From Prochlorococcus marinus str. MIT 9312 (GTDB lineage: Bacteria; Cyanobacteriota; Cyanobacteriia; PCC-6307; Cyanobiaceae): a DNA stretch of 64,000 bases. Position 1 is the first letter of the stretch; every line of letters begins with the position of its first letter. The notes under the pieces were generated by a model, which made no database searches, was not told where the DNA came from, and saw only the letters and a list, made by a program, of their open reading frames with translations. The translations under genes were made by a program, and so were the position numbers. Of this stretch, positions 31,181-32,886 are shown one piece after another. The DNA is taken from positions 1,488,001 to 1,552,000 of the forward strand of contig NC_007577.1 in the NCBI RefSeq assembly GCF_000012645.1. The letters are read 5' to 3'.

Positions 31181-31969
31181 TTGAAAAATATTGGTTTAAT
31201 TTTATTTGACATAGATGGTGTAATACGCAGCGTAGAGAATAGTTACAGACTTTCACTAAAAAAAACAGTTTACAAATTTTCCGGATGGGAGCCAAGTTAT
31301 ATAGATATTGATAATGCAAAAAATGAAGGGATATGGAATAATGACTGGGATTTAAGTTTAGAACTTATAAAAAGATGTATAAAAAAAGAGAACTTAAACC
31401 TTAAAATACCCTCCAGAGAGGAAATAGTTAAATGTTTTGGAGAGTTTTACTTTGGAGGAGATCCAAATGAAGATAGTAAATATTGGTCTGGATTCATAAC
31501 AAATGAGAAGTTATTAGTTGATAAAAAGTTTTTTGAATTAATACAAAGTAATGGAATAATGTGGGGTTTTGTGAGTGGTGCAGAGCATGCTTCTGCAAAA
31601 TTTGTTTTAGAAAAAAGACTTGGGCTGAAATCACCTCCATTAATATCTATGGGAGATGCCCCAGACAAGCCTGATCCTAAAGGTTTTATTAACTTATCAA
31701 AAAAGCTTCTTGGAGATAAGCTTGGAGAATCAAATATTCCCATTGCTTATGTAGGAGATACTATTGCGGATATAAATACAGTTATAAACGCTAGAAAGGA
31801 AATACCATCTCAGAAATTCGTAAGTATTGGAATAGCCCCCCCTCATTTACATTTAAAGTCTCGATTAAAAGAACGTAATTCATACGAAAAAAATTTACAA
31901 AGTGCAGGAGCTGACTTGATTTTAAATTCTATTAATGACCTTAAAAATATTAATCTAGACTTGTTTTAA
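31181..31969 (+). CDS. HAD-superfamily hydrolase (TIGR01548-like)
   Basis: A haloacid dehalogenase-type phosphatase of 262 residues. Motif I is LFDIDGVIRSVE, with the nucleophile Asp and general acid Asp at residues 9 and 11; motif II is the FVSGAEHAS serine; motif III Lys lies in DKPDPKGFI; motif IV is YVGDTIADI. A helical cap domain covers residues 20-110. The substrate is unknown. The start is TTG, and no ATG precedes motif I. It lies 92 bases after the CbiG-CobJ gene on the same strand. Confidence 0.82.
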   Translation: MKNIGLILFDIDGVIRSVENSYRLSLKKTVYKFSGWEPSYIDIDNAKNEGIWNNDWDLSLELIKRCIKKENLNLKIPSREEIVKCFGEFYFGGDPNEDSKYWSGFITNEKLLVDKKFFELIQSNGIMWGFVSGAEHASAKFVLEKRLGLKSPPLISMGDAPDKPDPKGFINLSKKLLGDKLGESNIPIAYVGDTIADINTVINARKEIPSQKFVSIGIAPPHLHLKSRLKERNSYEKNLQSAGADLILNSINDLKNINLDLF

Positions 31970-32020
31970 AAGGTATTAACTAATCAATATTTCTCAATTC
32001 ATTTCGGAGAAGGAGGGATT

Positions 32021-32140
32021 ATGCGAGCAACTCTATGTCTAGGTATGGCAAGAATAGTCATAATAGAAGATAGAGAAAATAACATTTTTCCGACAAAATT
32101 TCCGAAAGCACTTAAGCCATTCTTTAAGGAGGAAATCTAA
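32021..32140 (+). CDS. Candidate 39-residue small protein
   Basis: A short ORF beginning MRATLCLGMARIVIIEDREN and ending in a basic-aromatic KFPKALKPFFKEEI. I do not recognise it. The support is a perfect AAGGAGG ribosome binding site four bases before the ATG; in this genome strong Shine-Dalgarno sites occur mainly at ribosomal protein genes, so chance is less likely. It starts 51 bases after the HAD hydrolase gene and ends exactly where the stop of the convergent repeat gene begins. Whether it is translated is not shown by the sequence. Confidence 0.5.
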   Translation: MRATLCLGMARIVIIEDRENNIFPTKFPKALKPFFKEEI

Positions 32141-32452
32141 CTACTTTCCTATTTGTGAACCCACACCTTTGTTATTGAGTTCCTTTTGATATGCCTCTTT
32201 GCTTGAGAGTAAGATCTCGTTAATCGAGAATTTATTAAATAATGACTTTCCTATTTGTGAAACCACACCTTTGTTATTGAGTTCCTTTTGATATGCATCT
32301 TTGCTTGAGAGTAAGATCTCGTTAATCGAGAATTTATTAAATAATGACTTTCCTATTTGGGAACCCACACCTTTGTTATTGAGTTCCTTTTGATATGCCT
32401 CTTTGCTTGAGAGTAAGATCTCGTTAATCGAGAATTTATTTAACAATGACAT
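32141..32452 (-). CDS. Three-repeat protein (34-residue units) of unknown function
   Basis: A protein of 103 residues that is exactly one Met plus three units of 34. Each unit runs S-L-[LF]-NKFSINEILLSSK, then [ED]-AYQKELNNKG and V-[GV]-SQIGK. It is mainly helical and amphipathic, with no signal peptide or cysteine. The underlying DNA is a 102-bp tandem repeat, so the gene arose by recent duplication of one unit. I know no function for it. The ATG lacks a strong ribosome binding site. It may share an origin with similar single-unit proteins elsewhere in the genome, which the window cannot show. Confidence 0.65.
   Translation of the reverse strand: MSLLNKFSINEILLSSKEAYQKELNNKGVGSQIGKSLFNKFSINEILLSSKDAYQKELNNKGVVSQIGKSLFNKFSINEILLSSKEAYQKELNNKGVGSQIGK
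32144..32449. repeat. Three tandem 102-bp repeats
   Basis: Three direct repeats of 102 bp with no spacer. On the plus strand unit 1 (32144-32245) and unit 2 (32246-32347) differ at 2 positions, and unit 1 and unit 3 (32348-32449) at 3 positions. All changes keep the reading frame of the minus-strand gene. Each unit holds the small palindrome TCTCG-TTAAT-CGAGA. Confidence 0.97.
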
Positions 32453-32569
32453 AGTAGATGATCACTTAAGTTATCCATTCTTTTATAACGCATAGCAATT
32501 TGTACTTCAAATGTGTGAGATCTTTTTTGAAAATCTACATATCGAACTTTTGCAATTCAATCTGGACAA

Positions 32570-32599
32570 CCGACTACTGCGTCTGTAGTGGGGTTTTTT
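32570..32599 (+). terminator. Intrinsic terminator with no assigned gene
   Basis: A stem of CC-GACTAC with GTAGTG-GG (seven pairs with one G-G mismatch), a 7-base loop and a run of six T on the plus strand. No plus-strand gene ends nearby except the 39-codon ORF, 430 bases back and beyond the antisense repeat gene. It may end an unrecognised small RNA or a long 3' untranslated region. Confidence 0.7.
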
Positions 32600-32736
32600 A
32601 TGCAATTTTTTTTCCGACAACAAATTTGGGGTTGGATTAAAAATCTAACCTATAAAAAATAACTCATAAGTTGCTCTAATTCTTTTAACTGCAATTATTT
32701 TGACCCTTTCTGACGTTATCTGACACTAATAAAATA

Positions 32737-32825
32737 CGGAGAGGGAGGGATTCGAACCCTCGACAAAAGTTACCTCCTGTAACTCCTTAGCAGGGAGCCG
32801 CTTTCAACCACTCAGCCACCTCTCC
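32737..32825 (-). tRNA. tRNA-Ser(GCU)
   Basis: A class II tRNA of 89 bases. The acceptor stem is GGAGAGG with CCTCTCC plus discriminator G, the D-arm begins TGGCTGAGTGG, and the anticodon loop CTGCTAA reads GCT for serine AGC/AGU codons. A long variable arm follows, and the T-loop is GGTTCGAATCC. No CCA is encoded. Confidence 0.97.
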
Positions 32826-32886
32826 AGTTCTTATACATTATCAATTTTTTTGCAAACATTCAAAATTTTTTATTTAATCGAAATGT

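What the first reader, a model, noticed from the sequence alone, without database searches (positions are those of the whole stretch)
32141..32452. A gene made of nothing but three near-identical 34-residue repeats
Seen in sequence: after the Met the protein is exactly three 102-bp units, 97-98% identical, and the stop follows the last unit at once. Such high identity implies recent duplication, so copy number may differ between strains. The unit is amphipathic and helical, with a conserved AYQKELNNKG core. I know of no described function. A stand-alone repeat scaffold or a family of single-unit paralogues in Prochlorococcus is an inference.
Basis: partly seen in the sequence, partly recalled or inferred. 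Interest (0 to 1): 0.62.

Follow-up and report, generated by a model that had tools for sequence, protein, structure and literature searches.

The report
Mobile gene built from core-gene shards
A tiny gene in the ocean cyanobacterium Prochlorococcus appears to be stitched together from short pieces of ordinary housekeeping genes, repeated one to four times, and carried from place to place in the genome, often beside transfer-RNA genes, which gives a rare glimpse of a new gene being made on mobile DNA.

Summary
A 103-residue minus-strand ORF (32141-32452) is Met plus three 34-residue units, 95-98% identical in DNA. (1) Each unit looks like a chimera: about 17 residues resemble MsrA (protein-level evidence), and about 16-20 come from the first helix-hairpin-helix of RuvA. 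The leader is a shard of rpsO. In this genome the three source genes lie within 14 kb. One single-cell genome still has ruvA sequence running on from the array. (2) The gene is mobile. It occurs in 52 of 266 genomes of the genus, with 1-4 units, in at least seven chromosomal contexts, five of them at tRNA genes or tRNA 3' fragments. Here it is the only convincing gene of a 0.73-kb insertion between intact tRNA-Ser(GCT) and a displaced 15/17 copy of its 3' end; 10 of 20 other genomes show the empty site. (3) It behaves as coding: dN/dS about 0.45, only 3n unit spacings, few stops. I file it as a non-autonomous, tRNA-targeted mini-element that works like tycheposon cargo; tycheposon membership is not met (too small, no recombinase). 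Molecular function is unknown; weak nucleic-acid binding is only a guess. The searches made found no description.

The parts
32141..32452 (-). Chimeric tandem-repeat ORF, 103 aa plus stop (P0001)
32348..32449 (-). Unit 1 (34 codons)
32246..32347 (-). Unit 2 (34 codons)
32144..32245 (-). Unit 3 (34 codons), followed by TAG
32372..32422 (-). msrA-like shard in unit 1 (EILLSSKEAYQKELNNK); the same in units 2 and 3. Protein-level evidence only
   Evidence: ungapped 21-aa score 44-70 in 12 of 14 regions, against a maximum of 36 in 500 shuffles on L163
32324..32371 (-). ruvA-like shard across the unit 1/2 junction (GVGSQIGKSLFNKFSI); the same at the unit 2/3 junction
   Evidence: L042 and L150 run on into ruvA
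32454..32557 (-). Leader shared with other sites; 32454-32508 matches rpsO DNA of one relative at 84%
32005..32021 (-). Displaced copy of the tRNA-Ser 3' end, 15/17 (att-like)
32737..32753 (-). 3' end of the intact tRNA-Ser(GCT) (att-like, gene side)
32736..32826 (-). tRNA-Ser(GCT) gene, the integration target
32005..32736 (.). Inserted segment between the repeats, about 0.73 kb, absent from empty sites

Best explanation
The ORF is the only convincing gene of a very small, non-autonomous integrative element that sits at the 3' end of tRNA-Ser(GCT) in a Prochlorococcus genome. The element, or the array inside such elements, moves between several tRNA sites and between strains, most likely through tyrosine recombinases supplied in trans by larger tycheposon-type elements. 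The gene is young and chimeric: a shard of the msrA coding sequence fused in frame to a shard of ruvA (first helix-hairpin-helix), headed by a shard of rpsO and then amplified to 1-4 tandem units. Shown: the tandem ORF, the protein-level match to all three source genes and the DNA-level match to ruvA and rpsO, the tRNA 3'-end direct repeats, the empty sites, the presence at many sites, the unit-number change, and a coding signature. Inferred: recombinase-driven movement in trans, unequal recombination or slippage as the cause of unit-number change, and translation. Guess (about 25%): the product is a small basic helical protein that binds nucleic acid weakly through the RuvA-derived GVGxxxGKS hairpins. 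The confidence given is for origin and mobility; the first rival shares both and disputes only function.
For: Chimera: RuvA-like segment scores 51-68 in 14 of 14 regions (maximum of 500 shuffles 42); MsrA-like segment 44-70 in 12 of 14 (shuffle maximum 36); the shuffles were run on one region, L163. DNA matches: rpsO shard 55-79 bp at 75-84%; ruvA shard of unit copies 50-74 bp at 76-84%, listed only against L174; L042 runs on into 155-179 bp of ruvA-like DNA at 73-74% for the best matches. Leader sORF typed from other sites hits Pfam Ribosomal_S15, E 1.1e-4, below its cut-off. Source genes lie within 780338-794149 of this genome. Mobility: the displaced tRNA-Ser 3' end at 32005 is the only other match of 14/17 or better in the 64-kb window; empty site in 10 of 20 genomes; of 22 loci picked, 15 hold an intact tRNA and all 15 (four tRNA contexts) have its 3' end facing the array; tRNA 3'-half copies within 0.65 kb of the array in 7 of 35 loci picked, 5'-half control 0 of 35. 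Own array at tRNA-Ser and the G006 array at tRNA-Asn are 98.4% identical, the HAD gene 89.1%, ruvA 87.6%. Coding: dN/dS 0.446 (0.28-0.70) in frame, 0.78 and 1.56 in the other sense frames; 129 unit spacings, not deduplicated, are 102 (94) or 99 (35), while 3 of 17 distinct leaders have 1-nt indels; stops in 2 of 95 distinct unit windows, one of them upstream of the start, where about 11 are expected if neutral.
Against: No recombinase in the own element. The recombinase-like protein beside the site-F arrays is named from motifs only: no Pfam, PHROG, NCBIfam or PDB relative and a poor model. The own displaced repeat is imperfect (15/17). The most populous context (C) shows no tRNA within the fetched 6 kb; one genome has a partial tRNA-Pro 3' end 8 kb away. 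Array movement is not seen in every pair: for G009, G003 and G026 the array is about as divergent as the HAD gene. A DNA search of the own genome found only the ruvA match (58 bp, 74%, E 0.0039), not rpsO or msrA. dN/dS about 0.45 is relaxed for a conserved gene (recalled norm), and one antisense frame scores as low (0.39), as expected when third positions coincide. Units were collected with a motif, so stops inside the motif could be missed. No expression data, no fold, no minus-strand promoter-like site in 31950-32860.
Confidence: 0.78

Rival explanations
1. A degenerate, non-functional gene-fragment pile-up: islands at tRNA genes collect debris of core genes, the array was tandemly duplicated by chance and is merely young.
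For: Relaxed dN/dS 0.45; decayed unit copies after the stop at the tRNA-Cys site; rpsO leader drifting with 1-nt indels; detached ruvA remnants.
Against: All 129 unit spacings (not deduplicated) are multiples of three, far fewer stops than expected, presence in 52 of 266 genomes.
Confidence: 0.3
2. The DNA, not the protein, matters: the 102-bp repeats are homology for recombination between tRNA-site islands, swapping cassettes.
For: The same array with differently placed 5' boundaries (-457 to -17) at different sites.
Against: Third-position excess (33/35/74 changes by codon position) points to the protein. The two arrays of G030 (3 units and 1 unit) are not homogenised.
Confidence: 0.12
3. 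The unit is a diverged copy of RuvA alone; the MsrA likeness of SSKEAYQKELNNK is convergence.
For: RuvA has SSKDQKNFFIEILNIRG just before the hairpin, which can be aligned with a three-residue gap. The MsrA likeness shows at protein level only (37-43 of 63 identical bases in the 12 matching regions).
Against: Ungapped MsrA match of 44-70, shuffle maximum 36. The ruvA DNA match in unit copies begins within a few codons of where the MsrA match ends. msrA lies 13 kb from ruvA.
Confidence: 0.08
4. A repeat scaffold protein, as first proposed (34-residue helical repeat like TPR).
For: 34-residue period, helical prediction.
Against: No TPR-like family at E up to 10; no confident fold; traceable to MsrA and RuvA.
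Confidence: 0.04

Closest known systems
Tycheposons (Prochlorococcus cargo-carrying integrative elements at tRNA genes; passages of PMC10872708, original paper recalled, not held)
   Same: Same genus, site at tRNA 3' ends, variable cargo; in context F the array lies near tRNA-Met, a recombinase-like gene and an excisionase-like HTH gene
   Different: 0.73 kb in the window, 4-200 kb quoted for tycheposons; no recombinase of its own; one chimeric gene
tRNA/tmRNA-gene genomic islands (PMC4383910, abstract start in a search listing) and additive flexible islands with tRNA-Lys 20-nt repeats, 330 bp-42 kb (passages of PMC10872708)
   Same: Intact tRNA at one end, displaced 3' fragment at the other; tandem fragments as in L216
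   Different: The same small gene recurs at several different tRNAs; no integrase inside the own segment
RuvA (TIGR00084) and MsrA
   Same: About 16-20 residues of the first RuvA helix-hairpin-helix and about 17 residues of MsrA
   Different: No RuvA N domain, second hairpin or MsrA active site; not a functional copy of either
Pack-MULEs and Helitrons of plants (titles and abstract starts in the listing only)
   Same: Mobile DNA holding fused fragments of host genes
   Different: Eukaryotic transposons with other chemistry; here a bacterial tRNA-site element

Membership tests
Tycheposon | Located at a tRNA gene with a 3'-end direct repeat | tested here: met
Tycheposon | Carries a tyrosine recombinase | tested here: not met
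   No such ORF in the 0.73-kb own segment. In context F a 446-464 aa frame has GLRNHEL/DLRHTW/MGH/HYQ motifs (motif recalled) but no HMM support
Tycheposon | Length 4-200 kb (as quoted in PMC10872708) | tested here: not met
   about 0.73 kb
Tycheposon | tRNA among the seven described targets | not tested
   Original list not held; only tRNA-Met is named in the passages read
tRNA-gene genomic island (Islander type) | Intact tRNA plus displaced fragment marking the ends, and an empty site in relatives | tested here: met
   (empty in 10 of 20 genomes examined)
tRNA-gene genomic island (Islander type) | Integrase gene within the island | tested here: not met
   no such ORF between 32005 and 32736
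RuvA | RuvA_N domain plus two helix-hairpin-helix motifs | tested here: not met
   P0001 hits neither RuvA nor HhH models; the own RuvA P0002 does
MsrA | Catalytic GCFW motif (recalled) | tested here: not met
   Absent from P0001; present in the full gene
TPR or other 34-residue solenoid | Match to a repeat-family model | tested here: not met
   no TPR-like family at E up to 10; the only repeat family listed is Strep_SA_rep at E 1.7 over 8 residues

The most novel reading that the evidence does not exclude
A bacterial counterpart of Pack-MULE/Helitron gene-fragment shuffling: tRNA-targeted mini-elements of Prochlorococcus capture roughly 50-80-bp shards of core genes, fuse them in frame into new ORFs, amplify them in tandem and disperse them, and selection keeps at least one of the products as a new protein.
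Probability: 0.35. Interest if true: 0.82.

Novelty: new variant of a known kind. Interest (0 to 1): 0.62.

Why it matters
New genes made from pieces of old ones are well known in plants and animals but seldom caught in bacteria (recalled). Here the pieces, their likely sources, the mobile carrier, empty sites and an intermediate (an array still joined to ruvA) are visible in one genus. It makes testable whether tRNA-site elements manufacture genes, not only carry them, in one of the most abundant photosynthetic organisms.

Tried and rejected
Pfam hits of the own protein at E 6e-5 to 3e-4 (CFAP141, Cas9_PI2, Mad3_BUB1_II) were rejected as composition and repeat effects: short stretches, unrelated to each other, 9 of the 10 listed below the curated cut-off (Mad3_BUB1_II 21.2 bits, cut-off 21, with no stretch passing on its own). 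Four PHROG hits of unknown function (E 1.9e-4 to 3.5e-3, no stretch passing on its own) and one NCBIfam hit (E 0.0079) were treated likewise. The PDB hit 8pjs_A covers 12 residues and was not used. Phage origin: no match in 50,697 phage records; of 50 candidate stretches in IMG/VR none was confirmed. AlphaFold2 for the array (pLDDT 39.6) and for the recombinase-like protein (41.6) was too poor to search with, so no fold search was run. The weak hits with 217-262 aa frames were first thought to be paralogues; those I read are RuvA and MsrA. The tRNA-Ala 3'-half hits in L069 and L071 fall in tmRNA and were set aside, as was a 14-nt tRNA-Gly hit in L068. Literature searches for the gene, for ruvA-derived repeats and for chimeric genes in Prochlorococcus found no description (listings seen, passages of PMC10872708 read); the library lacks the original tycheposon paper, so absence from print is not proven. 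The donor lineage of the shards was not resolved: the best matches come from different clades.

Full report
WHAT WAS CHECKED. The ORF at 32141-32452 is on the minus strand: Met, three units of 34 codons, TAG. DNA identity between units is 97/102, 99/102 and 100/102. The genome is a single contig of 1,709,204 bp, which by size I take to be Prochlorococcus MIT9312 (recalled; no call names it).

DISTRIBUTION. With one-unit profile A1, 77 of 266 genomes of the genus match at E up to 1e-5. Of the 77, 52 have a best E below 1e-9 (the arrays); the other 25 have E of 1e-7 or worse, and those of them listed by place lie in 240-260 aa frames. I read one such frame, in the own genome (L004), and it is MsrA. 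In the family-wide sample of 400 genomes, 20 genomes of other genera match, all at E 1.8e-5 or worse; the 16 listed by place lie in 239-259 aa frames. No relative was found in phages or confirmed in IMG/VR. Among 56 distinct loci read, units in one frame number 3 (28 loci), 2 (13), 1 (13) or 4 (2); several are cut by contig ends and some are two ends of one array.

WHERE THE UNIT COMES FROM. Weak hits of the repeat led to two ordinary genes. RuvA reads ...LNIRGVGSQIGMGILSKFSISEV..., the unit reads ...LNNKGVGSQIGKSLFNKFSINEI... MsrA reads KKIIIASKEQYQKELNKKNLG, the unit reads NEILLSSKEAYQKELNNKGVG. I scanned 14 chromosomal regions from different genomes of the genus for ungapped 21-residue matches. 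The RuvA-like half scores 51-68 in all 14 (500 shuffles on L163, maximum 42). The MsrA-like half scores 44-70 in 12 regions (500 shuffles on L163, maximum 36); in L174 and L175 the best scores are 26 and 17, so no MsrA match was found there. At DNA level the MsrA-like half shows only 37-43 of 63 identical bases and I ran no separate DNA control for it. DNA comparison gives the ruvA shard 50-74 bp at 76-84% (listed only against L174), beginning within a few codons of where the MsrA likeness ends; in the own genome the ruvA match is 58 bp at 74%, E 0.0039, and neither rpsO nor msrA is found at E up to 1. Direct historical evidence is L042/L150 (scB241_528O2): after the last unit's stop the sequence continues as broken ruvA into the second hairpin (155-179 bp at 73-74% for the best matches). 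L025 and L068 also run on into FNKFSIKEIINAI, and L067/L148 hold a detached ruvA remnant with a similar downstream tail. The leader just upstream of the ORF matches rpsO (55-79 bp at 75-84%; Pfam Ribosomal_S15 E 1.1e-4, below its curated cut-off). In the own genome ruvA is 793475-794149, rpsO 793173-793463 and msrA 780338-781066, all on the minus strand. So rpsO', msrA' and ruvA' point to one 14-kb stretch, in an order different from the chromosome's (ruvA then rpsO there, rpsO' then ruvA' here).

MOBILITY. The arrays lie in at least seven chromosomal contexts: beside tRNA-Ser (own site), tRNA-Cys, tRNA-Asn, 2.3 kb from tRNA-Met with a recombinase-like and an excisionase-like gene, among five tandem tRNA-Pro 3' fragments (L216), and two or more contexts without a nearby intact tRNA, one of which (C) is the most populous. 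Of 22 loci that I picked, 15 hold an intact tRNA (four tRNA contexts, so not 15 independent cases) and in all 15 its 3' end faces the array; 7 hold none. A scan of 35 loci that I picked, with the 3' halves of 37 own-genome tRNAs, found copies outside intact tRNAs in 10; 7 of these (L101, L010, L027, L063, L046, L062, L042) lie within 0.65 kb of the array, 2 are tmRNA and 1 is a 14-nt hit elsewhere. The 5' halves found none in 35. The own copy (15/17) and that of L074 were below that scan's threshold and were seen. At the tRNA-Cys site the repeat extends past the gene (31 of 33 bases, counted from the output). In the window the only other match of at least 14/17 to the tRNA-Ser 3' end is at 32005-32021. 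In 20 genomes that I picked from the more complete ones, the HAD gene is followed after 22-37 bp by the intact tRNA-Ser 3' end in 10 (G002, G007, G008, G011, G012, G014, G016, G026, G032, G043). In 2 (G006, G030) the tRNA is 240-248 bp away, G006 with a degenerate repeat-like stretch at the old position; in 1 (G042) there are two 16/17 copies and no intact tRNA in reach; in 7 nothing was found within 1.5 kb. The own genome has 35 bp, the displaced copy, 715 bp, then the tRNA. That is an insertion, and its only convincing gene is the array; a 39-aa plus-strand ORF begins at the displaced repeat and hit no Pfam family.

RECENT MOVEMENT. The own array (tRNA-Ser) and that of G006 (tRNA-Asn) are 98.4% identical; HAD gene 89.1%, ruvA 87.6%. 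For G022 the array is 89.3%, HAD 77.1%, ruvA 73.3%. For G030 it is 95.8%, 91.0%, 84.7%. For G009, G003 and G026 the array (90.0, 90.3, 90.3) is about as close as the HAD gene (91.5, 89.7, 90.6). So three of six comparisons point to recent exchange and three do not. DNA shared between sites has a ragged 5' boundary (from -457 to -17 relative to the first SSK codon) and a 3' boundary mostly 57-77, at most 124, bases after the last SSK codon where the match runs to the array's end.

IS IT A GENE? dN/dS over codons 2-24 of 66 distinct segments is 0.446 (bootstrap 0.28-0.70), with 0.78 and 1.56 in the other sense frames; of the antisense frames one scores 0.39, as expected when its third positions coincide, and two exceed 1.6. 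Changes by codon position are 33, 35, 74, including 14 at the Met/Lys junction codon's second position. Stops occur in 2 of 95 distinct unit windows, one of them upstream of the start; about 11 would be expected under neutrality in the 24-codon part alone, by a rough count. The motif used to find units can hide some stops. All 129 unit spacings, not deduplicated between overlapping loci, are 102 or 99, while 3 of 17 distinct rpsO leaders show 1-nt indels. I conclude weak to moderate purifying selection on a translated frame. No fold could be predicted and no family fits convincingly.

HOW IT MOST LIKELY WORKS. Inferred: the element is mobilised in trans by tyrosine recombinases acting on tRNA 3'-end sites; units are gained and lost by unequal recombination or slippage; the product is a small basic helical protein (net charge +6). 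That it binds nucleic acid through the RuvA-derived hairpins is a guess at about 25%.

COMPARISON. Tycheposons are quoted as 4-200 kb elements with a tyrosine recombinase at tRNA genes (passages of PMC10872708; the original paper is recalled only). The window's element shares the site logic but fails on size and recombinase, so it works like their cargo or hitchhiker and is not filed as one. No search found the chimeric gene described.

Noticed in passing
L216 6271-17511: Five tRNA-Pro(TGG) 3'-end fragments in the same orientation over about 11 kb, with the array and other genes between them: a tandem of tRNA-bounded segments.
   Followed up: partly
L049 5559-5867; L149 2156-2398: A small protein just upstream of the array at the tRNA-Cys site matches PHROG 16908 at E 7.6e-17, unknown function; a similar one, judged by eye, lies near the array at tRNA-Asn.
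   Followed up: no
L214 7276-7701; L215 7657-8172: Another tandem-repeat ORF in the same islands (ASLLQL / ASPPQL repeats) whose sequence and length vary between strains.
   Followed up: no
L217 2247-8225: Genes that look like a type I restriction-modification system next to tRNA-Asn in an island that also holds an array; recognised by eye, not by a family search.
   Followed up: no
window 32021-32140: A 39-aa plus-strand ORF that seems to have a strong ribosome-binding site; that GGAGGG is in fact the displaced tRNA-Ser end.
   Followed up: partly
window 32215-32229, 32317-32331, 32419-32433: Each unit holds a perfect small inverted repeat TCTCG-TTAAT-CGAGA, and a terminator-like hairpin lies at 32574-32591, all reported on the plus strand.
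   Followed up: no
L071 1089-7379: Four copies of a family of about 350-420 aa, on both sides of an array.
   Followed up: no
own genome 780234-780338: msrA, one shard source, ends about 30 bp from tRNA-Pro(GGG), which might bear on how it was captured.
   Followed up: no
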